From positions 372,001 to 436,000 of the forward strand of contig NW_026570232.1 in the NCBI RefSeq assembly GCF_019649055.1: DNA of 64,000 bases. The letters run 5' to 3'. The notes beneath the pieces are model-generated. The model was not told the DNA's origin and did no database searches. It saw nothing but the letters and a program-made list of their open reading frames with translations. This DNA is from Paramacrobiotus metropolitanus. Its lineage: Eukaryota; Tardigrada; Eutardigrada; Parachela; Macrobiotidae. Made by a program: the position numbers and the translations under genes. Positions 7,519-35,725 of the stretch are shown here, in pieces (positions within the stretch are counted from its first letter, which is position 1; the number at the start of each line of letters is the position of its first letter).

Positions 7519-7529
7519 TCTTCTGACTT

Positions 7530-12343: not shown

Positions 12344-12429
12344 TGCAGTACCATTCTGCAGTGGTGACCTTTCCGTTCCCTTTTTATCCGGTGGTTTAGG
12401 GTCGGGGCGATCAGTAGGCTCACCGGCGC

Positions 12430-15400: not shown

Positions 15401-15891
15401 CTTTCCTTGGCCTCGAGTTCATTTTCCAATTCCCTCACACGAGTCCTCAAAGTCGTTGTGGGGCTGTTTGGTGATGGTGGTCGAACATTAATGACCTTTC
15501 CCGCTTGTGTCCGTTCGATAAGGCGTTCCGGTATGTCTTTAAACGGCGTCATACCTTCGGCGCGATCAGCCTCTTTCATTGCAGTTTGGAAGGACATATT
15601 CATCGTTGCTTCATCGTCTGTGAAGTACGATTCGTTCGATTCGTCTGAGACCATTGGAGTTGCCCAAAGGTCATCGCCTACAGTCTTATCGTTCACTGAA
15701 AGGTCATCCAGTCCAAGCTCAGCTAATTCCTCTTTGGTGACCTTTGTGTTTTCCATTTTCAGTTGAGTCAGGTTCACATTTTTATCCTGCTCGTTCGTTC
15801 CGGTTGTAGGAACATCCAACTGTAATGCTCCGATTGCTTCCGCTTCCTTTTTTGTGGTTCCATCCTCCCCAGTGACCTTTGTCTGGTTCAT
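12430..15891 (-). CDS. gag: Retroelement Gag with coiled coil, capsid, zinc knuckle and RGG box
   Basis: 1,153 codons. Residues ~165-520 are a long heptad-rich coiled coil. A PPPSY peptide lies near 532 and matches the PPxY late-domain pattern that recruits NEDD4/ESCRT factors in retroviruses. A retrotransposon capsid-like helical region lies near 665-830 (TFDGSRDTVNGW through FFRHWATGEEKY). One CX2CX4HX4C zinc knuckle (CQYCMYGNHQTQGC) lies near 980. The tail is Gly/Gln/Asn-rich with RGG-type repeats, expected to bind nucleic acid. The ATG at 15891 is chosen because the frame is closed shortly upstream. Gag is unusually long, mainly because of the coiled coil. AAAGGTCA words are frequent in it and often read as KVT. 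Confidence 0.9.
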   Translation of the reverse strand: MNQTKVTGEDGTTKKEAEAIGALQLDVPTTGTNEQDKNVNLTQLKMENTKVTKEELAELGLDDLSVNDKTVGDDLWATPMVSDESNESYFTDDEATMNMSFQTAMKEADRAEGMTPFKDIPERLIERTQAGKVINVRPPSPNSPTTTLRTRVRELENELEAKESQAMKRTKENREKLSSLETRIYELEQQQVDLESAADEWKIKYERQRELAEEYLKMVDDREMEGHLAVSDLNESMSEESAERSRHLAQLKDECDQLRQKVTEAEAKRDEYAANLAEVTQRLTRLATETFKLRNDLKLREEDISTLQRESKGHQKRADEAEKLRNDAIKTMREARDTTASEGERLKEEIKKVNDENEKVTADIQKVTKEGLKWQKEARRLDTMVTALELKDKEWHQQVAQKSQEITKLNTELLEMTTTALAKDDELIATKNQLRSAAGEYQKLEGDVTKLVEQIKRMEQENEKVTQQETFKLHEHLRKVNLENSDLKREREELHLRTKRLEDENKALNMSNKHKDEQLLQYGAKTATVESPPPSYSKAQETGTGKSFHFEMPLRTGTGRGNIKVEQDGEKAKDDKEKEPPSGYSHSSRREPSQFPPHIEVNAFIDEGRRDRPSSRQERPRRSRYAKPRRNTNDDENSEEEEDPRGGFALAKALNSMARKTPLVTFDGSRDTVNGWTRLVKDTQRTYQLTDDQIMIEIASAVKGPAKTWFESEKDIASEDGIEYSVTEWMDKFKDEYGDRDEEVLGLREAYARKFELGKESLDQYYQAMMRFKAKRIITEKQAVGFLIEGCRVDNELYKALRTQKCRTPTDVKDFFRHWATGEEKYKAPKGQRNQDYVTIRQGQVESVPQQRMAVAPVQQPVEYRMETPVREVTEKVTFIDSQTGQPITYAMVAAIQAAAQVRPVAQNVAPMNVGLPQQGVGNGNLGGNGYGNGNWNGGQGNFQNQGQGQAQRNFRGNQQNQGSRTEFKFQLIDGWVANNVQMCQYCMYGNHQTQGCKFANTPPEQNPNLFAFREWQRLRGLGGWRQAVANGYDIITQWYQHKASFPNQQGNGNYGNGNGGGQNGGYGRGGYGRGGFRGRNRGFGRGNYGNTQSGGNGGGQGNYQQGGGQCNNGGGQNPNPANGIGQQQGNLQGNVQGAQQGGAPVQGNGQDQ
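12445..12451 (-). promoter_or_regulatory. Predicted -1 frameshift heptamer GGGAAAC, Gag to ORF3
   Basis: On the minus strand Gag ends CAG GGA AAC GGG CAA GAT CAG TAG. G GGA AAC is a canonical X XXY YYZ slippery heptamer in the zero frame, 12 nt before the stop. The -1 frame is open straight into ORF3, which has no ATG near its start. Together these strongly suggest programmed frameshifting. Confidence 0.75.
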
Positions 15892-21538: not shown

Positions 21539-21544
21539 CCAGTG
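21539..21544. other. Target site duplication CCAGTG, left
   Basis: The hexamer CCAGTG directly precedes the Polinton left end and is repeated at 35720-35725 directly after its right end. Six bp is the duplication length made by Polinton integrases. Confidence 0.9.
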
Positions 21545-21685
21545 AGAAGAAACAGTATACTGTATAAACATAAGATGGCGTCGGTTACGTCATAAACTGG
21601 AGTTGGGAGCTGGACTTTCTAGTTACAATTCCCGGTTGTACTTTGTACTTGCAGCTCCCAACTGCAGCATATGATTCAGCACAAC
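21545..21685. repeat. Polinton left terminal inverted repeat
   Basis: About 140 bp matching the complement of 35580-35719, near-identical over the outer 70 bp (differences such as TATACTG against TATATTG). It contains an internal palindrome: CTGGAGTTGGGAGCTG at 21597-21612 against CAGCTCCCAACT at 21652-21663. Confidence 0.92.
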
Positions 21686-22204
21686 TGCAGCATATGATTA
21701 CTGCATATGTACACTGTATAGAAGTACACTAACTAATTTACTCACTTACTGATAATCACACACACACGCGCTGGTGCATCTGCTGTGCATACCTCAAGGA
21801 TGCTCGCAGCCCAGATGCAGCTACCTGTGCAGCCGTGTTGCACGCTTGCAAGTGGTTGTTTACATTCTTTTACCGCATGGAGCGGCATTGGCACATTAGC
21901 GCAACTGGCTCGTCAGCGATGTTGCTGCATACCATGCGCGTCTCTTATTGATTGAAAACACTTATAGTAATGCTGCGCACTTATAATATACAAATTATTT
22001 GTCAACTTATCGAGTAGTTTAATTGCTTAACTGGATTGTGCACGGCTTATATATAATTGTGAAACTTGACATGCGCCCAATGGTTGGAGTACTGTACGGA
22101 TGGATGGATGGTACTGTACTATATGGATACTACTGTACACTGTACAGTTATATTGGTTTACTTTCACTGCTTGATTCAACAAGTTGTTTACATTCTTTTA
22201 CACT
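21686..22204. other. Polinton left subterminal region
   Basis: No complete gene seen. The stretch 21851-21920 (TTGTTTACATTCTTTTA, then an ATG-led open stretch, then CTGGCTCGTCA) is imperfectly repeated at 22183-22240, so the first exon of the following small gene appears duplicated. Confidence 0.5.
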
Positions 22205-22733
22205 ATGGAGGAGCACTTTAACGCATCTGGCTCGTCAAAGCCTTTCAACGCATAGTAAGTGAAATATAATTACTTTTCAGTGGATATTACTAGCTGCTCT
22301 ATTCTCAACTTATTTATACATATATAATCATGGAAACTAACAGGTACGATGGAATATTATCTTCTTTATTACTGTACATTATGCCTGTAGTGTGTAATCA
22401 ATTTTGACAATTATTTGCAGTCTACTGCGTGCATGCTTATGCGTGCGTGCAGATCAACTGGAAAAAGTCCGCCAGGGTCGCTGCAAAATTTTTTCCACTG
22501 GAGCCAAAGCCACATTTCTGTTAACGATTACTCCGCTAATTGCAGAATTTATGAATTTCTTGTACACGAAGTAAGTGAAGCAAGTGTTTTTAGTTTATAT
22601 TACGTTGTAACCCATGCTGTATTTGTCATGTGTACATAGTTTCGGGGCTGCTATAAACAACGAGGGTTTGAGTGGAAAAAGTTGGCCTGAACTTCTCAAA
22701 GAATTTTTCCACCTTGTCAACGGTATGGCGTAA
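22205..22733 (+). CDS. Putative small spliced Polinton gene, unknown function
   Basis: Three exons fit by phase and GT/AG sites: 22205-22254, 22421-22570 and 22640-22733, giving 97 residues. Exon 2 is open with a hydrophobic stretch (TFLLTITPLIAEFMNFLY). Exon 3 reads FGAAINNEG then LLKEFFHLVN. I do not recognise the family. It is on the plus strand, unlike the adjacent TBP-like gene. The model rests on three phase-compatible junctions and could be chance in a decayed region. Confidence 0.35.
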
Positions 22734-23018
22734 TTTGCTGATTCCGCAGTTTCCTGATTACAAAAATTATTATTATATGCTTGTATGTTTGCTCAATGCT
22801 TTTATAACAAAAAAATACATTTCGTAATAAAATCTTATTATCATAATTAATGAGTAATGTATTGTACAGTATTGCATTGTATATGTAGTATGTACCAGAT
22901 ACTTTTAAGGGTAAACGTTCTTTACATTTCTCAATAAATTTAGCACTAATGCTTTGTAATGCCAGGTAACAGAAATATGCAACGATAGCTTTTTTTGTAA
23001 TTTTATTTACTGCTGCAT
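22734..23018. other. AT-rich spacer downstream of the TBP-like gene
   Basis: AT-rich; no gene seen. It contains AATAAA-type words in both orientations that could end either flanking gene. Confidence 0.4.
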
Positions 23019-23546
23019 TTAGGTTCCTAATAACAGGCGCAATTCGTTTTCAGCAGTATGAAGAGTATCAGCATCTTTTGCACCTAATAAATTAATTTTT
23101 CCAGAATGGAAAATCATCGCCATACAACCTTGAAGCCGGACTCGCATGGCCGGAAATATTTCAGGTTCAAACATGGCATCAGCTTTTGCTCTTATTGAGT
23201 TGTATAATTTCTCTAAACTAAGAAATTTCCCAAAATTGAAAGTGGCGACAATGTTAACAATTCTTGGATTCTTTAACGATGCTTTTTGATAGCCGTATTT
23301 TTGCAGTTTCCGGTAATAGTGATCCAATAACGCGAGAGCATCACTGATGGACTTTGCACCATTGACTGTGATCTTGCCGTTGCGGTACACTTGGCAGTGC
23401 GATTTGTAAGGACGAATGGAACGGAGAAGAAGCCCGGAAAATTTATGTGGTGCATAATGAGAAAGCGGAGCGCGTTCGGATAAGCTGGGTAAGTCAATTG
23501 CGCAGCCAAGGTCAGCAGTTGCAACAACGTTAGTTATTTTCGCCAT
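23019..23546 (-). CDS. TATA-binding-protein-like protein encoded by the Polinton
   Basis: An intact 175-codon frame that is almost exactly the TBP core with no N-terminal tail. Two pseudo-symmetric repeats are visible: residues ~1-88 (ITNVVATADLGCAIDL, KFSGLLLRSIRPYKSHCQVY, NGKITVNGAKS) and ~89-175 (PRIVNIVATFNFG, EIFPAMRVRLQG, MIFHSGKINLLGAKD). Each ends in the GK...GAK signature of TBP. Of the four DNA-intercalating Phe positions, three are Phe (KF, EIF, MIF) and one is Tyr (QVY). TBP nucleates transcription at TATA promoters. An element-borne copy could redirect transcription of the element's own genes. Its ATG overlaps the end of the upstream minus-strand ORF. The gene lies well inside the TIRs, so it belongs to the element and is not a flanking host gene. 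TBP is not part of the standard Polinton gene set I know. Confidence 0.85.
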   Translation of the reverse strand: MAKITNVVATADLGCAIDLPSLSERAPLSHYAPHKFSGLLLRSIRPYKSHCQVYRNGKITVNGAKSISDALALLDHYYRKLQKYGYQKASLKNPRIVNIVATFNFGKFLSLEKLYNSIRAKADAMFEPEIFPAMRVRLQGCMAMIFHSGKINLLGAKDADTLHTAENELRLLLGT

Positions 23547-23786
23547 TCAGCCAATTTGCAAATGTCTCCGCTTTTGAAAGCGTTGTTTGTGGTAATGAAG
23601 TAAGCTCCTTAAACTTCGGGCACCCAATGTCTTCAAGATTAAACACTTCAGGCAAATAATTTTCCAAAATCTTTTGCTTTTCCAATCCTTTGGCAAAAAA
23701 CGTCAAACGCGCAGGTCGTTCACCAATAAGCTCCAGCATATCCTGAAGACAATCTCCACGATTATCCGCTTTGAAGTCTCCATTCT
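23530..23786 (-). CDS. Exonuclease/RNase H-like C-terminal fragment
   Basis: An open frame on the minus strand that ends 17 bp inside the TBP-like start. It contains FFAKGLEKQKIL, NLEDIGCPKFKEL and FANWLN. The same spaced motif (AKG.EK, GCP.F..L, NW) occurs in the plus-strand ORF at 30104, so the two are paralogous domains in one element. The motif resembles the C-terminal part of a DEDD-type exonuclease-like domain common in arthropod mobile elements; that assignment is from memory. The frame is preceded by an AG acceptor at about 23787, so an upstream exon may exist, or the fragment may be all that remains. Confidence 0.55.
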
Positions 23787-23836
23787 GTTATCGGTACGCT
23801 AGCAATGAAGCACTCCGTACCTAGCAATAGCTGGAA

Positions 23837-24530
23837 ATGGATTCCTTAAATAGGTATCCGCGCACAACAGCTGATTTGAGATTCCGACTACCCGCTTCAG
23901 TCCTTGTTGTGGGGCCAACGACTTCGGGAAAACGACATATGTGTCAAAATTAATTATGGAGCGCGATAAATTATTTGACCAACCATTTGGACGAATTATT
24001 TTGGTGTACGGAGAAATGCAGCCAGCCTACGAAGTGCTTCAGCGCAAAGTCCCTTGGATTGAACTGACAAAAAATATTCAACAAATTGTGGAGGATGAAA
24101 ATTATTTTGATGGTAAACAAAATATTTTGTTGATACTGGATGACGTGGCAAGTGGTTTGGTGAAAAATGAGCATTTGGCTAAACTCTTCACTCAAAAGTA
24201 CACCATAAACGGCTTTGTGTATTTCTATTATTCAATAACCTATATAAACAAGGGTCTGCTATGCGAGACGTGCATCTTAATGCACAATATCTTATACTGT
24301 TCAAAAATAATCGTGATGTGAACCAAATCAAGATTCTAGAAAGGCAGACTGGTTTAAAACATCTCAGCGGAGCTTACGAGGAAGTCGGCCAGGAACCATT
24401 TCAACCTCTCATTTTGGATATGAAACCGGACACACCTGCCTATTTAAGGATTCGTTCAGCAATATTACCGGGAGAGTTGACTAAAATTTACATTAATCCA
24501 CATACGACAAACTTGCCCAAGAATGTGTGA
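23837..24530 (+). pseudogene. Polinton FtsK/HerA-type genome packaging ATPase, frameshifted
   Basis: An ATG at 23837 opens a frame reaching VLVVGPTTSGK, a Walker A loop, then hits a stop. One base back, the frame from 23941 continues (TTYVSKLI, RIILVYGEMQP, then LLILDD, a Walker B). A second -1 change near 24190 enters the last frame (NLYKQGSAMRD, LNAQYLILFKNNRD, AYEEVG). This matches the Polinton/adintovirus packaging ATPase along its length. It would load the genome into capsids. Both shifts look like one missing base at an A-run. The first coincides with a canonical G GGA AAA slippery heptamer; the second does not. Real decay is the simplest reading. Confidence 0.85.
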
Positions 24531-24851
24531 TCAGATTTTAAAAGACTTTGCACCGTTTCTCCTTACCCTGCGATCGCTGAAACCCAAGCAGCGTCGTTTT
24601 CTTTTGGAAAATATTTCGAAACGACAACTTCGCTGTTTTGAAGAAATTTGTTTGAATTTGGTAAAGAATTCAGTGCCTCTTACCACCGATCAGCTAAAGG
24701 TGTGTCAGCGTTGGCGTCGACCATTAAAGCTGATTGCCCTCAAAAAATATCCTTTACGAAGCAAGAGGAAATTTTATTACAGCGCGGAGGATTCTTACCT
24801 GCGGTTCTACCTGTATTGGCAGCTGTTTTGGGAACTGCCTTACTGAAATGA
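24523..24851 (+). pseudogene. Small conserved Polinton ORF (LKPKQRR type), frameshifted
   Basis: The ATG overlaps the ATPase end. The first frame reads LLTLRSLKPKQRRFLLEN and FEEICLNLVKNSVPLT. The conserved tail (KQEEILLQRGGFLP, then a hydrophobic AVLPVLAAVLG) lies in the -1 frame after an A6 run near 24750. A short protein with this charge pattern and a hydrophobic C-terminus accompanies many arthropod adintovirus/Polinton elements. Its role is unknown to me; a minor virion or membrane-active protein is possible. Confidence 0.6.
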
Positions 24852-25342
24852 AACCGGAAGTGCATTATATTGTTCCCGCGAGCGAAATGAAAAGACTTGC
24901 AAGTGACACGGTTGGTCGTATTGTAACGGATGTCCAATTACAACAGCAGCCTACTGAAGTTGTGGATATTGTAAAACTGGACGATTTGATGAGAGATATA
25001 ATTTCACGGAATACGCTAAGCGAATGGGAGAAAGCGGAACTGTTATCAAGAAACTTGGCTCGCTTTTGGCGCTGAAAGAGTCGGCGTTCGGCCCTGACCA
25101 AATGGTTATTCCGCCTCCAGCATCTGTGCCCCCATTCCAGTACAACTATTAAAGAAGCCGTGGGTACCCCTAATATGCCTGATCGTATGTTAGATGCTTT
25201 CCCTCCTATTCCACCTGCACCCCCGACAAAACGCAAGCGTGCAAAGCGAGAAGTATTTGATGAAAACACTTTACAAATCGAAGGTCCCATCGGTTCAAGA
25301 ACCAAATCCCAGTTCAACTGGATGACTATTAATAACAAATGA
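24848..25342 (+). pseudogene. Unknown Polinton ORF, Pro-rich with basic NLS-like stretch
   Basis: ATG at 24848. The first frame (MKPEVHYIVPASEMK, then LDDLMRDIISRNTLSEWEKAELLSRN) stops at 25075. The reading continues in other frames as PPPASVPPF and then DAFPPIPPAPPTKRKRAKRE, ending at 25342, so two frameshifts are implied. The first part resembles a small conserved Polinton ORF of unknown role. The tail is proline-rich followed by a KRKRAKR basic patch. Confidence 0.5.
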
Positions 25343-25417
25343 GTGGTGGTGGATGCGTTCCCTTTTCTTTGTCTTTGGGTGAAGGTATGACATGGAACTG
25401 CACATCTAGCTGTTGCG

Positions 25418-26388
25418 ATGGATCAAGCAGTAGCGACGACGAATACGATGGCCAATCTACTGCTACGACAAGCGTATCTGAACCCTCAGCACCCGGGCAG
25501 CTTAACAGGGATTCAAAAGTTTCGCAGCCACTTTCCACAAGCACCAAACTATCAACAAACGCGGGAACAGCTGGAGCATCTGGATCCATATACAGTCCAC
25601 AAATTTCGACGCAAAAGGTTCAAAAGAAACCCCGTAGTTGTCTCAAACCTAGCAGAGCAATATCAAGCCGATCTGGCAGACATGTCAAAATATGCGAAGC
25701 AGAACAAAGGATACCGTTGGATATTGTTTGTGATCGACGTCTTCAGCAAGAAAGTGAGCTGTCAACTACTAAAGAATAAAAGCGGTCTAGAAGTAAAACT
25801 TGGGTTGGAAAAGGTGTTTGCAGAACTCGGAGCTCCCATTAAATTGCAAACGGACAAAGGTCTTGAATTTTACAATAAGGATGTTAAGAGTTTTTTGACA
25901 GCCCAAAAGGTTTTTTGTTCTCTTCTGAAAATAAAGCAATCAAAGCATCCTTAGCTGAAAATGGCATACGCAATCTCAAGAAACGAATATGGAAATTATT
26001 TCGACACCGACAGTCTAAAGTGTACTGGGACGTTCTGGGAGATTTGGTAAACAGTTACAACAACGCAATTCATTCTTCGCATAAAGTCACGCCTAATGAG
26101 GTTAGCCAGTCCAATTCTCTGCAAATATTCAATCGACTATATGCAGAATTATTATTGGGAAAGCAGAAAAAGCCAAAGTACAGCGTAGGTGACACAGTAC
26201 GAGTAGCCATCGACAAAACACTTTTTGAAAAAGGATATGAGTCAACATTTAAGGAGGAAATTTACAAGATACACCAAGTATTACCACAACAGCCCGAGCC
26301 CCTCTACGTATTACTGGATGAAAACGGGGACTTAATTCGCGGGAAATATTACGAAGCCGAACTCAGTCGTGTCAGAAATGGCTCATAA
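25418..26388 (+). pseudogene. Polinton retroviral-type integrase, one frameshift
   Basis: The first frame (25418-25954) has the N-terminal region and catalytic Asp residues in YQADLADM and LQTDKG. The second (25915-26388) has the Glu in SLAENGIRNLKK and a C-terminal SH3/chromo-like region (KYSVGDTVRVAIDK, YYEAELSRV). The D,D,E set matches Polinton integrases, which insert the element and make the 6-bp duplication seen at its ends. The frames are offset by -1 at about 25905-25918, near AAAAGGTTTTTT. The end overlaps the start of the minor capsid gene by about 10-20 bp. Confidence 0.9.
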
Positions 26389-27310
26389 TAGCTTTTATGT
26401 CACGCTTCCATCTGATGCCTGTATGCAACAGTTCCCAAAGAATAATGCAGCTGAATGGACCACAAAGTTAAAGAGCGTGATATCGCTACCGGGACAATGG
26501 GAAATGGCATTGGTGGAAATACAGTATCCTAATTCAATGTACAATTTACCCAGTCCCCAAACGTTGCACGTTGACCAAGTTACTTCTATGGATAGCAACG
26601 GTGTTTTCGCTATGGAGAGGGACACAATTACGGTACCTGCAGGGATCTATGAGAAAAGTGACATCATTAATTTTATCAACAGTAAAGTACCACGGTTAAA
26701 GCCATTTCGCGATTCTACAGCGAAAGAACAGGCGGCTTTCGAACTAGAATTATTTGCAACCGAGCCCAAGCTCAAAGTGAAATTTCCCAGCGTACGTGTT
26801 TTTCTGGATTTTCCTCCCTCATCTTTGCATCTATCCCGTATGCTTGGATTTAAAGAACGACGATTTTCTGCTGCACAGTCTGAACAATATGAAAATTTTT
26901 TAATGGAAAAAACGAATTTTGCTTCCGCAGCTACAACACTGTCCGACCAGCTGAAAGCCCTGGCAGAGTTGCAACTGTTGGAGACGTCTATAACAATGAC
27001 AGCAGATAAGCCCGTAAATATGCACATTGGGAACCAGTCAATTTTTGTCTACTGCAACAAGTGCGACTACAATATTGTGGGCGATGAAACTATGCAGCTT
27101 TTGCGCGCTTTCCCCATTAAAGCAAGTGTTCCTCGCTTCGAAATTGTTTCCGAAAGGTTTGAGGATCCACATTATTTACCTGTTTTATACGATCGACTGG
27201 ACACTATTGATATCAACATTGCAACTGATCTCGGAGAAGCGGCAATTTTTCAGACTGGAAAGTCAATGGTAAAGCTGCATTTCCGCCCCATTCAGTATTA
27301 CTATCGCTAA
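26369..27310 (+). CDS. Polinton minor capsid (penton-like) protein
   Basis: An intact 313-codon frame; the second Met (26381) is an alternative start. It has the hallmark N-terminus FYVTLPSDACMQQFPKN, followed by LPGQWEMALVEIQYP, and the C-terminal VKLHFRP typical of this family. The family is the single-jelly-roll minor capsid protein forming virion vertices in Polintons, related to adenovirus penton base. It overlaps the integrase end and precedes the pVI-like and major capsid genes, the usual structural block. It is one of the few genes here with no frameshift. Confidence 0.88.
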   Translation: MSEMAHNSFYVTLPSDACMQQFPKNNAAEWTTKLKSVISLPGQWEMALVEIQYPNSMYNLPSPQTLHVDQVTSMDSNGVFAMERDTITVPAGIYEKSDIINFINSKVPRLKPFRDSTAKEQAAFELELFATEPKLKVKFPSVRVFLDFPPSSLHLSRMLGFKERRFSAAQSEQYENFLMEKTNFASAATTLSDQLKALAELQLLETSITMTADKPVNMHIGNQSIFVYCNKCDYNIVGDETMQLLRAFPIKASVPRFEIVSERFEDPHYLPVLYDRLDTIDINIATDLGEAAIFQTGKSMVKLHFRPIQYYYR

Positions 27311-27314
27311 AAAA

Positions 27315-27735
27315 ATGCCCGTAATCCTCTTTGAGCCGTCACCATCGTTCTATCTGGATTTATTTGCGGGGGGCCGCCACGGGCGCTAATAGCCAGCACG
27401 GCTATGGAGCCGTCATGACACGCTATCGCGGGAGTTTAATGCAAAATGGCAGCGGATTTATGCTACCTAATTTCCTGCGCGCAATGTTTAGTAAATTAGC
27501 GCATTTTGCTGCCCCGGTTATTAAAGCAGCGGCACCACATGCCAGAGCAGCAATCGAAGCAGCAAAGCCCCACTTACGCGACGCAGCGACAACAGTTTTA
27601 AGTGAAACATCCAAGAAGGTAGGAGAGAAAATTTCGGAAGCGTTAACTGCGCAACCTCAACAGCAAGGAGGCATCAAACGGCTCAAGCAGCAGCACAAGA
27701 GGACAAAAGATAAAGAAACCTTCCTTCCGACTTAA
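27315..27735 (+). pseudogene. Polinton pVI-like minor virion protein, frameshifted start
   Basis: An ATG at 27315 opens MPVILFEPSPSFYLDLFAGG and stops after 23 codons. The continuing frame (27331-27735) has QHGYGAVMTRY, GSGFMLPNFLRAMFSKLAHFAAPVIKAA and an Ala-rich amphipathic stretch ending in QQQGGIKR and lysines. This layout resembles the adenovirus pVI/pX-like membrane-active protein of Polintons. The frame change coincides with a GC-rich G-run near 27370. Confidence 0.6.
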
Positions 27736-27763
27736 ACGGCTTAAACGGATTCCCCAAGAGAAT

Positions 27764-29113
27764 TTGAGGACGCATTTTAAAATGGCTTTTATTTTGGAAG
27801 GAAGCGTGCCAGCTATGCAGGTCGAGTCGGATTTATTCTCCGTTCCGGCCACTCTAGCGGATTTTGTGCGGACAGAAGAAGAACGCATTCTACCAACATC
27901 AGGGCAAACAGAAGAAATTAGTTCTGGAGAAATTTCCTTTTACATTCCCCCTTCAACGTCGGCGCTGCTAGTGCTACCGGAAATTACGCTAGAAATGGAT
28001 ATTGCAATCAAAAAGCAAATTGCAGGACTTGGTGCGGCTACGCATATTGAAAACACGGATCTGGTAGCACCAGTGAACTTGATTGCGCATTCTATATTCA
28101 GCTCGGTAGAGGTAACAATGGCCAACCGCCTGATAACTAATTCCACCCCATTATATGCCTACCGAGCGTACTTGGAAAATTTGTTGGGGTACACACCGGC
28201 TGCCCTAAAAGCCAGGCAACAAGTGCTGGATTTTATATAGACACTCCGGGTACCTAGAAGATCATGCCAATAACGCTGGAGAAGTAACGCGAAAAGCTAT
28301 GTTTGTGACCAACGAGTACGTCCCGTTCAGCGCCAAATTATGTACGGACATTTTTCAGCAGGGAAAAAATTTGATCACCGGTGTACCGCTACATGTGCGC
28401 CTCATTTTGAATAAGCCGGAATTCTACCTGCGTTCATATGCCAATCTTCCAGTGGATACCTTTAAAGCATACATTCGCAATCCGCGGTTGTACGTCAAAC
28501 GCTTTGTGCTAATCCGGCATATTTGTCTGCGCTTACTGCCCAATTATCGACAAAGACTGTGAAATACCCTATTGAGCGAGTGTGTATGCGTGTTAATGAT
28601 ATTGGTATGATTCAGAGCACAGTGCTGGCTAATTTACATATTGGAGCAGTACCCAAATGTGTTTTTGTGGGATTTGTAAAAAGCTCGAGTTTTCACGGGC
28701 TGCGCCGAGGTAATCCGTTTAACTTTGAACATTTCAATCTCAACTATATAAGTGTCGAAGTCGACGGACAGTCGTATCCCGCACAAGCCTACCGACCAAA
28801 TTTCGCCACGGGTGATTATTTGCAATCATATGACGGTCTGTTGGAGACGCTCGGCCGCTTGCACGCACCGGACGGGGCGCTGCCTTTCGACCGTAAAGCA
28901 TTTGCGGAAGGATTTGCTATTTGGGGATTCGATCTGACACCTTCACGGACAGGCCGGGGACCGATGAGCACCGTGCGCCAAGGAAATCTATCAATCCGCC
29001 TGCAGTTCGCCGCCCAATTAACTGAACCAATTATGGCTATTACGATGATGGTGTGGGATAATATTATTGAAGTCAATTCACATCGCCAGCTAATTGCGGA
29101 TTTTACAGCGTAA
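27764..29113 (+). pseudogene. Polinton major capsid protein (double jelly roll), two frameshifts
   Basis: Three consecutive frames, 27764-28240, about 28240-28562 and 28523-29113, together give a ~440-residue major capsid protein; the likely start is the ATG at 27782. Visible signatures: ESDLFSVPATLADF near the N-terminus, NRLITNSTPLYAYRAYLENLL mid-way, AGEVTRKAM and KLCTDIFQQGK, then KYPIERVCMRV and GLRRGNPFNFEHFNLN. These follow the Polinton MCP, which forms the icosahedral shell. Shifts lie near 28235 and 28510-28520. The last part is complete to its stop. Confidence 0.88.
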
Positions 29114-29144
29114 AAACCTAACGTAAGTGTTGTAAGACTTAAAA

Positions 29145-29309
29145 ATGCCGTGTTGTTGCCTGCGCGGTAAGCTTCAGGGTCGCCAGCGGGGGTGGGCGCG
29201 CCGTCGGCCCCTTTTGACGCTGAAGAGAATCGTGACGGATGTGGTAAACAATGGGCGACCGGAGCGCTTCGCGCTCTCGGTCGCCCGTTGTTTACAGGAC
29301 AAAGTGTAA
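29145..29309 (+). CDS. Small Arg-rich ORF between capsid and protease genes
   Basis: 54 codons starting MPCCCLRGKLQGRQRGWARR and ending at a TAA before the protease leader. It fills the gap between major capsid and protease exactly and is basic, so a small core or DNA-condensing peptide is possible. The DNA also folds into strong hairpins, so the frame may be incidental. Confidence 0.3.
   Translation: MPCCCLRGKLQGRQRGWARRRPLLTLKRIVTDVVNNGRPERFALSVARCLQDKV
29244..29295. other. Long near-perfect hairpin before the protease gene
   Basis: Arms of about 24 bp (29244-29267 and 29271-29295) pair with one wobble and one bulge around a TTC loop. The stem centre is GGGCGACCG/CGGTCGCCC. It is followed by an A-rich run at about 29305-29320. 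A second, weaker GC-rich inverted pair (CTTCAG/CTGAAG) lies just upstream at about 29170-29225. Confidence 0.8.
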
Positions 29310-29336
29310 AAAAAAAAAATTCAGATTTTATTTTGA

Positions 29337-29876
29337 ATGCAGATTGGCACTAAAATGGACACTGCTGAAATCGACCACGTGCTACGTTCAAGTACCGTGA
29401 CGAAAGACGCTTTTATTGGTGTATTTGCTGCGGACATGTTACCACCGTCCCTGCCAATGAAGCTGCCATGGGCATGCGTTGTCAATACTGACGAAGCTGC
29501 AAAGCCAGGCTCGCATTGGTTGGCGTTCTACCAGGACGTCCCGGGAAAATTGGAATATTTTGACTCTTATGGTCACGAACCGAGATTTTACGGCATCCAT
29601 ATTGAAAGTTTTTGCAAGAACGCCGAGTTAGTTATTTCGCAAGCGCATCGTTTACAAATGGAATGGAGTACCGTGTGCGGACAGTACTGCTGCTTTTTTA
29701 TTCTAAAACGATGCTCCGGCGAGTCATTTACCTCTCTTATTCATTTGTTCACCAATAGCAAATCGTCGAATGATCGAATGGTTTGTGCTTATATTAATCA
29801 TTATTTTGATTTGAACACTGTAATTCGTGATCGCTCTATGATAATTCAGTCTGTTTTCCGTCAAATAATGCAATAA
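29337..29876 (+). CDS. Adenovirus-type cysteine maturation protease of the Polinton
   Basis: An intact frame; the ATG at 29355 (MDTAEIDHVL) is the likely start, giving about 173 residues. The catalytic His is in PGSHWLAFY, the acidic partner region is EYFDSYG, and the nucleophile Cys is in STVCGQYCCFF. This order and spacing fit the C5/Ulp1-like protease that cleaves capsid precursors in adenoviruses and Polintons. It follows the capsid genes. The lack of frameshifts here contrasts with its neighbours. Confidence 0.92.
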   Translation: MQIGTKMDTAEIDHVLRSSTVTKDAFIGVFAADMLPPSLPMKLPWACVVNTDEAAKPGSHWLAFYQDVPGKLEYFDSYGHEPRFYGIHIESFCKNAELVISQAHRLQMEWSTVCGQYCCFFILKRCSGESFTSLIHLFTNSKSSNDRMVCAYINHYFDLNTVIRDRSMIIQSVFRQIMQ

Positions 29877-30103
29877 AATCTGGCCATCCAAACCCTTACG
29901 TATGAGTGTAGGTGTAGTTACTTTGTACCGCAACAAATTGCAGTGCAACAAAATATTACACTACAGCAACATTGCGCTGCCATGTGGATGTTTTGTTTCG
30001 AAATATAAACAGGACATCGCATTTTGTACTCGTGGTCTTGCCAAAAACATGTGCTTCATAGCAGTTTTTCCTTACTGCATCTATTTCTATTTGGCGAAGC
30101 AGA
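29877..30103. other. Spacer, no supported gene
   Basis: A short open frame starting at 29902 has no family signature. Confidence 0.4.
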
Positions 30104-30688
30104 ATGGTTTTTCGAATTGTTGTGGACATCAAATGGTATAATCGTAATGAGAAGTCAATTATAACGGAACTGGCAATTAGTTCTGTTGATTTCCATTGTC
30201 TATATTACACCCGATTTTTGCTTCCTCCGGATAATTACATTGTTAGCAAGTACGGCATCAGTTCCACGAATGTCGATGAAATATTTGTTAAAGCTTTCTC
30301 GGACCTGGAGATTCAGATAAATCGAGCGTTCAGAAACTATCTGCAAAACGTTAAAGACCCCCTAAGCGTTGTTTTCTATGCGAAAGGTTCAGAAAAGTGC
30401 GGTATTATCCAGGATTTATTAAAATCTGATTGCATCAACTTGGACTCGTTAGGCTGCCCGCGCTTTTCCGATTTATGCAATGACAGATGCTACAGTCCCA
30501 ACAAAGCACAGGCTTACTCAAACTGGATGCTGACTCAGTATCTAAAAAGTTCCAAAAAATGCTTGCTTTGCCGCATGCCGATCCCCGACACTGGCGTTCG
30601 TCATCATCGACGATGGCGCAGTCGAATTTCAAGACCAGATCTAAATTACTATTCGGGTACGTGCTCAAATTTTGATGTTCTTTTTTAA
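30104..30688 (+). CDS. Exonuclease/RNase H-like domain protein
   Basis: 194 codons. FRIVVDIKWYN with ELAISSVDFHCLYY at the start resembles the first strand of a DEDD-type nuclease fold. FYAKGSEKCGIIQDLL, NLDSLGCPRFSDL and YSNWML follow. A parallel domain is on the opposite strand at 23530-23786. Domains of this kind are common in insect and crustacean mobile elements. The last ~40 residues (KKCLLCRMP and a basic run) may belong to another frame or intron. Catalytic residues cannot be confirmed by eye. Confidence 0.5.
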   Translation: MVFRIVVDIKWYNRNEKSIITELAISSVDFHCLYYTRFLLPPDNYIVSKYGISSTNVDEIFVKAFSDLEIQINRAFRNYLQNVKDPLSVVFYAKGSEKCGIIQDLLKSDCINLDSLGCPRFSDLCNDRCYSPNKAQAYSNWMLTQYLKSSKKCLLCRMPIPDTGVRHHRRWRSRISRPDLNYYSGTCSNFDVLF

Positions 30689-30947
30689 AACATTTCTGAC
30701 AAGGTTTACGAAATTGCAGATGAACAGGGTAACAGGTGCTGCATCCGTTGTGGAGCTGTATTCATTTCCGGTGAGGACCGCACTGAACAAAAAAGGATCG
30801 CGGATATTAACATGCCTGACATTTTTAGCGCATGAATCATTGAGCGATCTGTTTGGAAATTCAGATGATAACAAAAATGCTGTAGCGGAATTTATTCATA
30901 TATAATCTGAGTATCTTGGGTGCATCTTTGAGACTAGTAAAATCACG

Positions 30948-33900
30948 TTGCCAGAGCTCGTCTTTACGATGACGCAAGTACCTGATCGTGTACAGGGCAA
31001 CTCTAACGCCTGTACTAGTAACCCACAGTTTGCTGATACCGCACTTTTTAATCATGATTATGCTCTTCTTGATCATAATTATACTGTACCACGAGCTGAT
31101 CTGCCAGCTTTGAATATCGCTGACGAAGTCGATCCAGACTTGAATGACATTAAAGATTATTATGTGCTCGAAAATATCGGAGCAAAATATTCCCAGAAAT
31201 TTTCAGTTTCGTTCGAAACTTACAAATGTACAGTGACGGGGCTGGATAATCTATCGTTCAAGTATGCTGTTAAAACGATAACACTCGTTTTGAAAGATAT
31301 TCTGGAGAGTGTGATTGCTGCGATTCCAGCGCATAACCTGGTGCGAATCCGCATGTATCAAAATGCTCTGCAGTATCCAATTTGGATGCCACCTATTCGG
31401 CGGGACCAAATAACAATTGAACGGTGGATGACGACAATAAGGCGGATTCTAAACTCTAATCAGGCTTTTCTGCTAGACGAATCATTTGAACTGTCAGTCC
31501 AGCACACTGATTTGCCATCCGGATCATGCAGAAAAAATGTATCAAAATTGTTGCAGCGGATTTTAGACAACAAAAGATGTATTACCCAGATTCGAAATAC
31601 GGACTGTTTGTGTATGGCCAGGGCTATAGTTGTGGCACAAGCGCATGCAGATGGCGACAAAGAGCTGTACACAAAGCTTTACCGAACCAAAAGTTGCAAG
31701 ACCAGAAGACAAAAGAATTATTGTTGACTGCCAACCTGCCAAACAGAGAATTCAACGTGCAAGATATTCCCCGCTTTGAAGAAGTTTTACCGAATTATCA
31801 GTTTATTGTGGTATCTGTGGATCATGGAAATTCTATCGTCTACTGCGGCGCCTACTGCGAAAAGCGAATTATGCTGCTGCATCACGATCAACATTTTGAT
31901 GTTTTAACATCTTTACCGGCCTATTTTGAGCACCACTATTACTGTTACCGTTGCATGAAAGGCTACGATCAAAGACAGTATCACCGCTGCGAGTTCAAGT
32001 GCCACCAGTGTTTGTCTGCAACTTGCAAAATGAATAAGCAAGAAACCATACACTGTCTGGACTGTAACCGCGATTTCTATGGGCAAGATTGTTTTGACAG
32101 ACACCAAGCTGGGAGCAGCACCATCTGCGCAAATTTTTCATTTGCCGTGAGTGTAAAACCTTTGTCTCTATGGTAAATCGCCGTATGAAGACCAATTACG
32201 ATACAATTCATGGTGAGGACAATGACCAGGACCACGATATTGCTGAGGAAATCGAACTAGATGTTGACGATCAGCAACATCGATGTGGTGAGTTTTTTGT
32301 GCGACTTGCTCGTTATTCTATATGCCGGAGGAAAACCATGTGTGTTATATGAAACCCGTGGAATTTACGGATAAGGAAAAGGCCAAGCACCATAACGACA
32401 AGCTGGCATACTTTGACCTGGAAACATATCAAGACGAGAGTGGAGAATTTAAAGTCAACCTAGCGGTGATCGCGACAAAAAATGAAAAATTTATTCTTCC
32501 AGAAAACGGTAATATTAACGGCGACATTTCACAAGAACTTGGCGATTTCATTTTCAGTGAGCGTTTCCGTGGCTACACATTTATGGCGCACAATTTGAAG
32601 GTAGCGAAAGTCAACACGTTAAGTAACTTCTTTATTAAATAAATTGATAATTCATTTTTCAGGGATTTGATGGATACTTCATTTTGAATTATCTCGTGAA
32701 AAACGGCGTTATTCCACGTCCGCTTATTTTCAACGGGAGCAAGGTTATGCAGATGGACGTGCCCAAACTCAAAATAAAATTTCGTGACTCTATGAACTAT
32801 GTACCATCATCGTTAAAAAATTTTGCGAAAGCATTTGGTTTGCAAGAAACCAAAGGAGATTTCCCACACAAACTTAATAAGCCTGAAAACTGGAATAAAA
32901 TAATTGCTTGGCCCGATCGTCATGACTATGGCTATCAGTCTATGAAAAAGAAAGAACGAAAGCGCTTCATGAAATGGTACCGCAAAGAGCGACGCCGTCA
33001 CAGGAACAAATTCGACTTTAATGCACACTTTATCAAGTAAGCTAAACCCTTATGCTATTTACAGAATCGAACTTATCCGATTCGTTTTAGGTATTGCTCA
33101 CAAGATGTCCTTATTTTGCAACAAGCGTGCGAAAAATTTCGAGCGCTTTTCCAACAGGTAACCGATGGATTATGCCCATTTGCGTCTGGACTAACCACAC
33201 CCGGCATGTGCAATTACTTTTGGAGAGCGCGAATGCTGAAGGAAAACCAAATTGCGTTGATCGGCCCTCCTGGTCAGGGCAAAAAGTCATCTGTCAAAGG
33301 AGAGCGTTGGCTACGCTGGATTGAAATGGAAAATGATGTAAAATTGCAAAAGAGCATCGAATCGGTCACTGGACTGTGGATGGTTTTGATCGGGATACAA
33401 AAACCGCTTACGAGTTTTAGGTTAGTCAGCTCGATATAAATGTTATCGATCACATTCAAAACGCAATTCACCTTCAATGTTTTTGTGCAGGATGTATGTG
33501 GCACGGCTGCAGCGAATGCACAACAAAAAGCACGCTGCATCCCTTTCTGAAACGGCCAATGGAGGAAGTCAACAAAGCAACTGCCTTACGCCTTGAAGCT
33601 ATCAAAACTATGGGCTATTCCGTAGTTTCGATCTGGGAACACGACTATGATAGCCGGCTCACTACTGACCTGGAATTTCAGAAAATAATTCAGTTGACCG
33701 GTATTGAAGAACCTATGCACCCCCGAGACGCATTTACTGGTGGCAGGACAAACGCTATCAAGTTGTACCACAAGTGCGATCCTGGAGAAAAAATCTATTC
33801 GCTCGACGTTATCAGCGAATACCCTTATATTAACAAAAATCTACCTTATCCGGTGGGACCGCCTGTTATCATTACTAAAGATTTTCCGCCTGTGAAGAGT

Positions 33901-35247
33901 ATTTTTGGAATAATTAAATGTCGCGTCATTCCTCCACCGTCGTTGTTTTTACCGGTGCTACCTTACAAAACTGATAAACTGACTTTTCCTTTATGCGCTA
34001 AATGCGTGACGGAACGCGTAAACGAACCATGTTCTCACGATGATGAGGACAGGGCTCTGGAAGGAACTTGGTGCACTCCAGAAATTCATCGAGCATTAGA
34101 AGTTGGCTATCGTATCGATAAAATATACTCGGCTTGGCACTATCCAGAACAAATGCAGTATTTATTCAGAGAATACATTGACCTGTTTTGAAGCTGAAAA
34201 CGGAAGCTTCTGGATATCCACCACAGTGTCAAACGGAAGATGAAAAAGACAGATATATTCAAGAATTCCTTGCTAAAGAAAATATTCTACTGGATAAAAG
34301 AATATTGCGAAAAACGACGCATTGAGAGCTCTTTGCAAGCTTATGCTAAATAGTTTTGGTACACATGTGAACTTATTTAATTTGTGCATGTTCATTATTT
34401 TTACGCTCATTGCAGGGAAAATTTGGTCAACAGGAAGACCGATCCAACACGGATATGGTGGAAAAGAAAGAGGTATTCCATGATTACTTGTTTTCTAACA
34501 AGTACGAAGTCGCCGGGTTCGATTTGGTCACCGATGAAGTGATGGCAGTTCAATACCGCTCCAAGAAGGACTACATTGCGACGAGCAAAAAGACCAATGT
34601 TGTTATCGCAGCTTTTACGACTGCGTACGCACGGCTACACTTATTAAAATTCATGGAAATGGTTGGAGACCGTTTGTTATACCACGATACAGGTGAACGC
34701 GCGAAACAGTATTATCGGCAAATTGCTCATCCACTTCTTTATTTTGCAGACAGCATTTTCTACATCCATAGAGACGATTTGCCCGATCCACCAACGGGAA
34801 CGTGCTTGGGTGATTTGTCCTCGTCTTTACAGCCTGACGAGTACATTGACGAATTTGTAGCGCTTGGTAAAAGAATAATTATCTAGATAATAATATGCGA
34901 GCAACTTAAAATGTTAATTCTTTGTTGTCCCAGGACCAAAAAGCTATGCTTACCGGACAAATACTGGATGTGAAACGATAAAAGTCAAGGGATTTACGTT
35001 GACTCGGCAAGCGAAAAAACAGCTAAACCTGGAAAGCCTGAAAGAGATGCTACTGGAAAGCCTGGCATCACCGGACCAGCCAAGCGGAATTACCGTGAAT
35101 TATCCGTTCAACATAACACGCAATAAGCGCAAGCTGGAAGTTTCGTCGGCGGAAATTAACAAACGATTTAAACTTACTTACTCAAAACGTAGAATTGTTG
35201 ACTCTGATTTTAACACTCGCCCATGGGGTGATGTTTCGATTGAGTAA
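30948..35247 (+). pseudogene. Protein-primed family B DNA polymerase, spliced and frameshifted
   Basis: The N-terminal frame (30948-31727) ends in KRCITQIRNTDCLCMARAIVVA, a Polinton PolB signature. A Cys/His zinc region follows (31900-32130), then the 3'-5' exonuclease (AYFDLETY; GFDGYFILNYL; YCSQDVLIL). Polymerase motif A is at about 33806 (LDVISEYPYIN), motif B at about 34345-34430 (CKLMLNSF, then GKFG after an intron), and motif C DTDS at about 34688-34753. Introns by GT/AG and phase: 32601-32662, 33037-33090, near 34369-34415, 34693-34749 and near 34868-34933. Frameshifts fall near 31690, 32140, 32300, 33340-33430 and 34190. The enzyme would copy the element by protein priming. This copy is broken. 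Confidence 0.88.
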
Positions 35248-35578
35248 ATCATCAACTTCCAGTGCGGTGCAATTGTTAATAAAAGTCCTGACACTGTGGC
35301 TTGCTCCGAAAAATGCTTCCAGCAGTATTATAAGAATTAACATAACAATAATGCAAGTCCCCACCACGGCTTCGCAAAAGTTTTTTTTTACACACAATGC
35401 GCGCCATTGTAACAAAAGTCACTTGTTTTTTTTTTCTAGATTTTATGCGTTCCGTGGTGCCTTTAATACTTACTTCCTCCCGAAAGACTGTAATTAGTTA
35501 ACTATTGTATAAAATTTTAACTACATATATATATATATATATAGTATTATAGTATGCACTATGGACATACACTATACA

Positions 35579-35719
35579 ATTGTGATGACTCATATTCTGG
35601 AGTTGGGAGCTGTAGTCATAAAGTCCAACCGGGAATTGCAGCTGGAAAGTGCAGCTCCCAACTCCAGTTTATGACGTAACCGACGCCATTTTATGTTTAT
35701 ACAATATACTGTTTCTTCT
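35579..35719. repeat. Polinton right terminal inverted repeat
   Basis: Inverted match to 21545-21685. It contains a perfect 16-bp internal palindrome pair: CTGGAGTTGGGAGCTG at 35597-35612 and its complement at 35652-35667. A TA microsatellite lies just inside, at about 35526-35544. Confidence 0.92.
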
Positions 35720-35725
35720 CCAGTG
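35720..35725. other. Target site duplication CCAGTG, right
   Basis: Matches 21539-21544 exactly; the partner of the left duplication. Confidence 0.9.

What the first reader, a model, noticed from the sequence alone, without database searches (positions are those of the whole stretch)
23019..23546. A Polinton that encodes its own TATA-binding protein
Seen: an intact 175-codon frame with both TBP repeats, both GK..GAK signatures and three of four intercalating Phe residues, inside the TIRs of a precisely bounded Polinton. Known: TBP-like genes exist in some giant viruses; the standard Polinton set (PolB, integrase, ATPase, protease, capsids) lacks TBP as far as I know. Inference: a host TBP or TBP-related gene was captured, reduced to its core, and may direct transcription of element promoters or compete with host TBP. 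It stays open while many neighbours are frameshifted.
Basis: partly seen in the sequence, partly recalled or inferred. Interest (0 to 1): 0.9.

Follow-up and report, generated by a model that had tools for sequence, protein, structure and literature searches.

The report
Polintons with their own TATA-binding protein
A large group of virus-like mobile elements in a tardigrade genome carries its own ancient version of the protein that marks gene starts, with altered DNA-reading residues and unusual start signals before its virus-particle genes, which suggests that the elements run their own gene-switching system.

Summary
Confirmed and extended. Window 23019-23546 (minus) encodes a complete two-repeat TBP (Pfam E=1.9e-36; AlphaFold pLDDT 96.6; Foldseek TM up to 0.92 to TBP structures) inside an exactly bounded 14,175-bp Polinton with a 6-bp target duplication. 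It is not a recent host copy: 27% identity to the host TBP, 203 merged TBP loci in this genome (host gene and fragments included), and 117 of 142 capsid-gene loci with a TBP within 14 kb. The host is inferred to be the tardigrade Paramacrobiotus metropolitanus (contig lengths). Polinton TBPs form one clade apart from the cellular TBPs compared (100/100), with dN/dS below 0.4. Residues recalled as base-contacting, constant in 13 cellular TBPs, are replaced in almost all Polinton rows. The type II structural operon is preceded by [TC]ATTTAAG, not TATA (18 of 20; random 44 of 12,000); in type III another box precedes it (19 of 25), while the TBP gene keeps a TATA box (24 of 27). Likely function: an element-encoded, promoter-selective TBP, convergent with herpesvirus late TBPs. 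DNA binding and transcription are untested.

The parts
21545..35719 (.). Polinton element (14,175 bp), termini AG...CT
   Evidence: TIR arms 21544-21687 / 35577-35720, 88% complementary; ends and length read
21539..21544 (.). 6-bp target site duplication CCAGTG, left
35720..35725 (.). 6-bp target site duplication CCAGTG, right
23019..23546 (-). Polinton TBP gene, intact, 175 aa
23530..23787 (-). fragment (85 codons) of an F11-family frame, its end overlapping the TBP start
   Evidence: related copies L044 and L045 read F11 and TBP in one open stretch of 407 and 403 codons
23956..24321 (+). packaging-ATPase-like fragment (121 aa)
   Evidence: family 7; P-loop GPTMSGK in other copies
24523..24846 (+). 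F8, conserved small protein of unknown function
   Evidence: family 8
25418..25954 (+). integrase (rve), shortened
   Evidence: PF00665 E=1.7e-8
26378..27310 (+). penton-like minor capsid (by gene order; no Pfam hit)
   Evidence: family 2, present in 12 of 12 elements
27415..27735 (+). pX-like small protein (name recalled)
   Evidence: family 4
27782..28240 (+). major capsid protein, first piece (broken in this copy)
   Evidence: family 1; relatives named F54H12.2-like
28586..29113 (+). major capsid protein, second piece
   Evidence: family 1
29337..29876 (+). adenain-like protease
   Evidence: PF00770 E=4.2e-6
30104..30688 (+). second F11-family frame
   Evidence: family 11; AF2 model of a relative weakly resembles DEDDh exonucleases
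32322..34886 (+). PolB in four separate frames (broken)
   Evidence: PF03175 E=1.6e-16 for 33496-34191; family 6
24441..24448 (+). TATTTAAG, 82 nt before F8; candidate TATT box, may be coding (ATPase tail)
   Evidence: a TATTTAAG also lies 82 nt before F8 in L012
26246..26253 (+). CATTTAAG, 132 nt before the penton frame; candidate TATT box

Best explanation
The ORF is the TBP of an old lineage of Polintons and not a stray host copy. Shown: TBP recurs in three element layouts, under purifying selection, with the TBP saddle fold and intercalating aromatics kept and a non-cellular set of residues at the base-contact positions. Shown: in the 20 type II loci examined the first gene of the ATPase...capsid...protease operon is preceded by a TATT-type box ([TC]ATTTAAG in 18) and no TATA box; in 19 of 25 type III loci it is preceded by a positioned RGAGTTTTTG-like box, while 24 of 27 type III TBP genes have a TATA box. 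Inferred: host TBP transcribes the viral TBP from its TATA box (type III); the viral TBP, perhaps with the element's PC4-like protein, binds the non-TATA boxes, keeps the TFIIB contact (E188), recruits host Pol II and turns on the structural operon, that is, an early-to-late switch.
For: TBP identity. Linkage: 104 of 164 TBP loci within 12 kb of an MCP match in three stereotyped layouts; chance about 4 of 164 at the 14-kb cut; 117 of 142 MCP loci with TBP; 12 of 12 element loci read (the window and 11 loci chosen for a TBP, mostly with a capsid match nearby) hold integrase, MCP and penton families. Outside this genome: environmental TBP P0033 and MCP P0164 share a contig length of 21,688 (ena), P0031 and P0172 of 20,036 (lgn). 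Selection: nine close pairs (dS 0.05-0.25, not all independent) have dN/dS 0.05-0.39; deeper pairs 0.09-0.17 with near-saturated dS. Contact residues (55 type I/II+environment rows, 10 type III rows): T124 to N 55 and 9, T215 to L 55 and 10, L114 to Q 54 and 10, V122 to T 55 (I in 10 of 10 type III), V213 to N 54 (type III: V 5, T 3, M 2); cellular 13 of 13 unchanged; E188 kept 52 and 10. Promoters. PC4 domain in a linked gene.
Against: No transcript, start-site or DNA-binding data. Distances are to ATGs, not start sites. Promoter copies are related: the 20 type II upstreams fall into 12 clusters drawn by eye (10 of 12 with the box), and 8 of 10 held-out type III loci are 77-99% identical, ungapped, to a locus of the first set (the other two, L086 and L090, have the box with 2 mismatches). 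Host TBP might read TATTTAAG well enough by itself. The type I/II TBP units have no consistent box of their own (TATAWA at 1 of 6 type II F11 starts; the TATTTAAG on the TBP strand in the window is absent in 7 of 7 other copies). Subfamily III-a (3 loci) lacks the RGAGTTTTTG box. Locus L068 has TATAAA at -111 before its operon, one base outside the scanned stretch. 42 of 164 TBP loci had neither MCP nor PolB in the truncated lists, and 25 of 142 MCP loci had no listed TBP. The unbiased k-mer tests alone were not significant.
Confidence: 0.6

Rival explanations
1. The non-TATA boxes are ordinary weak TATA variants read by host TBP; the element TBP has another or auxiliary role (for example, only raising TBP supply).
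For: TATTTAAG is close to a TATA box (inference). Type I/II TBP units show no distinct early promoter.
Against: TATAWA is absent from 20 of 20 type II operon starts, whereas type III TBP genes in the same host have it (24 of 27). Host histone ORF starts: 0 of 21 with the TATT box, 3 of 21 with TATAWA (22 of 30 fetched loci examined, one without an ATG; many are partial ORFs, so a weak control). The contact residues of the Polinton TBP differ from all 13 cellular TBPs compared.
Confidence: 0.17
2. The TBP is a decoy that competes with host TBP or TFIIB and so shuts down host transcription.
For: It mostly keeps E188 (TFIIB contact) and loses the basic helix-2 residues used by TFIIA, Mot1 and NC2 (roles recalled; counts).
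Against: A decoy need not have a near-invariant new base-contact set, nor be accompanied by positioned non-TATA boxes in the element.
Confidence: 0.1
3. TBP and the PC4-like protein act in replication or packaging of element DNA rather than transcription.
For: PC4 folds bind single-stranded DNA (recalled); 83 of 105 PC4-like loci lie within 14 kb of a TBP locus; F11 resembles DEDDh exonucleases weakly.
Against: The boxes sit before gene starts at fixed or narrow distances. Binding sites at the termini were not looked for.
Confidence: 0.08
4. A recent host TBP pseudocopy inserted into one Polinton.
For: None found.
Against: 27% identity to host TBP, 203 merged loci, separate clade.
Confidence: 0.01

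Closest known systems
beta/gamma-herpesvirus late TBP mimic (KSHV ORF24 and relatives)
   Same: Virus-encoded TBP-like protein; late promoters carry TATT in place of TATA (PMC7498053, passages seen); here type II operon starts carry [TC]ATTTAAG.
   Different: ORF24 is a 752-residue protein with a Pol II-binding N-terminal domain and a TBP-like domain found by threading (PMC7498053 passages); the window protein is a 175-aa TBP core with clear sequence similarity. Homology beyond the TBP fold was not tested.
TBPs of Nucleocytoviricota and Mirusviricota
   Same: TBP gene in a large eukaryotic DNA virus: 59% of mirusvirus genomes (PMC10132985, passages); TBP with two TFIIB in CpV-BQ1 (PMC12085832, passages); Foldseek BFVD hits.
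   Different: Those are large viruses; the 50 listed BFVD matches are at 7-22% identity. Here the carrier is a 14-kb Polinton.
Polinton/Maverick elements
   Same: TIRs, 6-bp TSD, PolB, rve integrase, adenain protease, packaging ATPase, capsid operon.
   Different: TBP and a PC4-domain protein are not in the standard gene set as I know it; ten literature searches showed no report (open-licence PMC papers only, and the lists were cut at 30 of 338, 20 of 41 and 15 of 166).
Cellular TBP (host, yeast, archaeal)
   Same: Two-repeat saddle, N159, aromatic wedges.
   Different: Changed at the L114, T124, L205 and T215 positions in nearly all Polinton rows, and at V122 and V213 by type; 26-32% identity.

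Membership tests
TBP (PF00352) | Profile match over the curated cut-off, two repeats | tested here: met
   124.2 bits against cut-off 22.9, 2 stretches
TBP (PF00352) | TBP saddle fold | tested here: met
   AF2 pLDDT 96.6; 44 PDB matches with E<=1e-3, by title and chain TBPs or TBP-containing complexes and fusions; TMq 0.79-0.92
TBP (PF00352) | Intercalating aromatics and central Asn pair | tested here: met
   F/Y at 4 of 4 positions in 65 of 65 rows; N159 65 of 65; N69 57 of 60 rows with a letter there, His in the other 3
TBP (PF00352) | Binds TATA DNA and nucleates a Pol II complex | not testable with these tools
   needs binding and transcription assays
Polinton/Maverick | Terminal inverted repeats and 6-bp target duplication | tested here: met
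Polinton/Maverick | PolB and rve integrase | tested here: met
   PF03175 E=1.6e-16, PF00665 E=1.7e-8, both over cut-off
Polinton/Maverick | Adenain-like protease | tested here: met
   PF00770 E=4.2e-6, over cut-off
Polinton/Maverick | Double-jelly-roll major capsid protein | tested here: inconclusive
   No PDB profile match and no relevant Pfam match among 26 members; assigned by gene order and by the recalled identity of the F54H12.2-like family; not folded
Polinton/Maverick | FtsK/A32-type packaging ATPase | tested here: inconclusive
   Conserved GPTMSGK P-loop in other copies; no Pfam hit over cut-off
Herpesvirus-type late TBP system | Late promoters with TATT in place of TATA | tested here: inconclusive
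   [TC]ATTTAAG 18 of 20, TATAWA 0 of 20 at type II operon starts, 0 of 25 in type III; lateness and TBP dependence not tested
Herpesvirus-type late TBP system | Pol II-binding N-terminal domain on the TBP | tested here: not met
   The window protein is 175 aa, the TBP core alone

The most novel reading that the evidence does not exclude
These Polintons carry a small transcription-control kit of their own (TBP with re-specified DNA reading, a PC4-domain protein, in some copies an exonuclease-like fusion to TBP, perhaps a histone) and run an early-late switch: host TBP reads a TATA box in front of the viral TBP gene (type III), and viral TBP then reads TATT-type or RGAGTTTTTG boxes in front of the capsid operon. 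The TATT box would be a convergent invention with beta/gamma-herpesviruses, in an element of only 14 kb.
Probability: 0.42. Interest if true: 0.92.

Novelty: new variant of a known kind. Interest (0 to 1): 0.86.

Why it matters
Polintons are thought to lie near the root of many eukaryotic DNA viruses and, as far as I know, were not seen to carry their own initiation factors. A TBP kept across three Polinton layouts, together with changes in the protein's DNA-reading face and non-TATA boxes at the element's operon, makes promoter re-specification by a captured general factor directly testable in a small system. It also offers an independent comparison for herpesvirus TATT promoters, and some two hundred natural TBP loci.

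Tried and rejected
Recent host TBP copy: rejected (27% identity, own clade, 203 merged loci).

IMG/VR scans with P0001 and with alignment A1 found no relative (4 and 132 stretches matched a pattern, none confirmed). PHROGs: no match for four element proteins, two of them TBPs.

SL1 search to identify the host was uninformative; the host was named instead from nine contig lengths shared with Paramacrobiotus metropolitanus records.

Unbiased k-mer search before gene starts: no k-mer passes correction. ATTTAAG (6 seen, 0.8 expected) and TATTTAA (7, 1.31) were among the top for types I/II and were then met at type II ATPase starts, which were not in that set. In type III, GGAGTTTT and GGAGTTTTT did not exceed shuffles by count; only the fixed position stood out, tested on held-out loci. 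Rows dropped there: 5 of 20 first-set loci and 3 of 13 held-out loci had no P-loop found.

Rows dropped elsewhere: the tree and the residue counts leave out L002-L007 (near-copies of the window gene), L040, P0032, P0033, P0037 and P0039. The 27 type III TBP starts leave out L040, whose fetched stretch begins inside the gene; L019 counts only with a downstream in-frame Met; L056 had no ATG and counts as a miss. The 142 MCP loci leave out 8 second fragments of 150 matches. From only loci new to the list were typed (17 of 150 rows, and the non-repeated rows of 124).

A shared 'TACTGTTTTGC' before INT and PC4 was dropped: in INT it is coding. The TATTTAAG at window 23852 (minus) was dropped as a promoter: absent in 7 of 7 other copies. 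The three-frame stop count was faulty (it repeated one frame) and is not used. YATTWAAG 20 of 20 was widened after seeing the two misses; random rate 167 of 12,000.

dN/dS within the window family (28 pairs, 0-4 nonsynonymous and 0-2 synonymous changes) is uninformative. The tree lacks NCLDV, mirusvirus and TLF/TRF TBPs and has long branches, so the source of the gene is open.

Full report
Observation. The frame at 23019-23546 (minus) is real and intact. Pfam gives PF00352 in two stretches, E=1.9e-36. AlphaFold2 on an alignment of 34 sequences gives mean pLDDT 96.6, and Foldseek against the PDB gives 44 matches at E<=1e-3, by title and chain TBPs or TBP-containing complexes and fusions, with TMq 0.79-0.92. 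The element around it runs from 21545 to 35719 (14,175 bp) with a CCAGTG target duplication on both sides and AG...CT ends. Inside are frames for ATPase, integrase (PF00665), penton, MCP, adenain protease (PF00770) and PolB (PF03175), several of them broken in this copy.

Host. G000 has 169.8 Mb in 533 contigs. A search with the MCP of locus L010 returned proteins labelled Paramacrobiotus metropolitanus on contigs of 1075524, 183854, 930367, 941505, 4484719, 1324273, 1283027, 1291523 and 1315046 bases, which are the lengths of contigs C44, C181, C60, C58, C1, C26, C32, C31 and C29 of G000. I infer that the host is this tardigrade.

Copy number and linkage. Three own-genome searches (each scored only part of its candidates) merge to 203 TBP loci, the host gene and fragments included. 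In the first two alone, 104 of 164 loci have an MCP match within 12 kb, in three layouts: type I, TBP on the opposite strand (37 loci, with the window); type II, same strand, TBP 2.5-7.5 kb downstream of MCP (54); type III, same strand, TBP 4.5-5.5 kb upstream (13). At the 14-kb cut the uniform expectation is about 4. In reverse, 117 of 142 MCP loci have a TBP within 14 kb and 25 have none listed. Of 164 TBP loci, 31 have both MCP and PolB, 73 MCP only, 18 PolB only and 42 neither. The 42 include the host TBP (C4), and at least one of them (L020) does hold Polinton genes, so they are not all stray. Twelve loci read in full (the window and 11 chosen for a TBP, mostly with a capsid match nearby) all hold integrase, MCP and penton families. 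The MCP is named by gene order and by a recalled family identity; a profile of 26 relatives matched nothing in the PDB, and in Pfam one member of 26 had an irrelevant weak match.

Outside this genome. The protein search found 39 relatives at E<=1e-5, of which P0002-P0033 are 40-52% identical. Two environmental TBPs sit on contigs whose lengths equal those of MCP hits from the same source (21,688 ena; 20,036 lgn), so TBP and MCP very likely share a contig there too. Neither IMG/VR scan found one.

Evolution. In a 78-row tree the 65 Polinton-type TBPs form one clade (100/100), with type III plus P0034-P0036 as one branch and types I and II mixed with environmental sequences in the other. The window protein is 27% identical to the host TBP. 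In nine close pairs inside subfamilies dN/dS is 0.05-0.39, and 0.09-0.17 in deeper pairs whose dS is near saturation. The gene is old in the lineage and under constraint.

DNA-reading face. By yeast numbering, with roles recalled from TBP-TATA structures, the positions that touch bases are changed in a regular way. In types I/II plus environment (55 rows): L114 to Q 54, F116 to Y 55, V122 to T 55, T124 to N 55, L205 to V 50, V213 to N 54, T215 to L 55. In type III (10 rows): L114 to Q 10, F116 kept 9, V122 to I 10, T124 to N 9, L205 to N/K/H 10, V213 kept 5, T215 to L 10. All 13 cellular and archaeal rows keep L, F, V, T, L, V, T. N159 and the Phe at 99, 190 and 207 are kept in all rows; N69 is kept in 57 of the 60 Polinton rows that have a letter there. 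E188 (TFIIB contact, recalled) is kept in 52 of 55 and 10 of 10; basic helix-2 residues are not. Rows were found by similarity to the window protein or to a TBP profile, which favours shared motifs.

Promoters. Type III TBP genes have TATAWA 25-120 nt before the ATG in 24 of 27 loci, against 595 of 9600 random positions and 7 of 112 starts of other element genes; by box position I count about six subfamilies. The ATPase gene, first of the operon, has none within 110 nt (0 of 25 in type III; L068 has TATAAA at -111). In most type III copies a box near RGAGTTTTTG lies at -72 to -66: 10 of 15 in the first set and 9 of 10 held-out loci at two or fewer mismatches, against 7 of 300 windows at other upstream offsets and 3 of 650 in coding DNA; 19 of 25 in all. 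Eight of the ten held-out loci are 77-99% identical to a first-set locus; the two that are not (L086, L090) have the box with two mismatches. Subfamily III-a (L013, L015, L019) lacks it. In type II, [TC]ATTTAAG lies 36-81 nt before the ATPase ATG in 18 of 20 loci (20 picked from 150 ATPase matches; 19 lie 7-12 kb from a listed TBP, L115 has none listed), TATAWA in 0 of 20; random element positions 44 of 12,000, window host DNA 8 of 6000, type III ATPase starts 0 of 25. By clusters 10 of 12; shuffled upstreams mean 0.25 and at most 3 of 20. Host histone starts: TATAWA in 3 of 21, the TATT box in 0 of 21 (22 of 30 fetched loci examined, one without an ATG; many are partial ORFs).

Partners. In type II a gene beside the protease carries a PC4 domain (PF02229 over cut-off in two copies, E=1.9e-8 and 1.4e-8; below cut-off in three, one of them type I; none in L018). 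Of 105 PC4-like loci in the genome 83 lie within 14 kb of a TBP locus. F11, whose frame overlaps or adjoins the TBP start and lies in one open stretch with it in L044 and L045, gives an AF2 model of pLDDT 81 with weak likeness to DEDDh exonucleases (best E=5e-4, TM 0.5-0.6).

Reading. The protein is a TBP and the elements are Polintons. The shared change of its base-contact residues, and the absence of TATA boxes before the operon that it would serve, argue for a promoter-selective factor. The parallel is the beta/gamma-herpesvirus TBP mimic, which replaces TBP at late promoters with TATT (PMC7498053, passages). The switch itself is inference. Ten searches for earlier reports (open-licence PMC papers only, three lists cut short) showed none; passages of PMC10675990, PMC10132985, PMC11071308, PMC12220804, PMC11464507 and PMC12085832 were seen, none with a TBP in a Polinton, and a term search in PMC10120064 found no TATA or TBP. 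Jeong et al. 2023 on nematode polintons was not held, so a mention there cannot be excluded.

Noticed in passing
L146:1-258 (-) = G000 C158:28915-29172; also C31:159027, C90:103391, C41:261481, C10:708406: Histone H2A-like frames (PF00125 E=1.6e-6 for C158; the others weak) about 5-6 kb from MCP matches: some of these elements may carry a histone.
   Followed up: partly
L013:703-1236 (+): BIR (inhibitor-of-apoptosis) domain frame upstream of TBP in a type III-a element (PF00653 E=3.8e-7).
   Followed up: no
L010:3855-4568 (+), L016:4950-5885 (-): PC4-domain protein linked to TBP, possibly with two PC4-like repeats (by eye).
   Followed up: partly
L013:2177-3244 (+), L015:7799-8881 (-): Type III-a TBPs have a C-terminal extension of about 180 residues with no convincing Pfam match (L013).
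   Followed up: no
L013, L015: ATPase-F8-F10-INT-penton-pX-MCP-PRO frames overlap or nearly abut end to start, which suggests polycistronic expression from one promoter.
   Followed up: no
window 3511-15891: Long frames on the minus strand (1328, 384, 1223 and 1153 aa) that look like a retrotransposon by eye, beside the Polinton.
   Followed up: no
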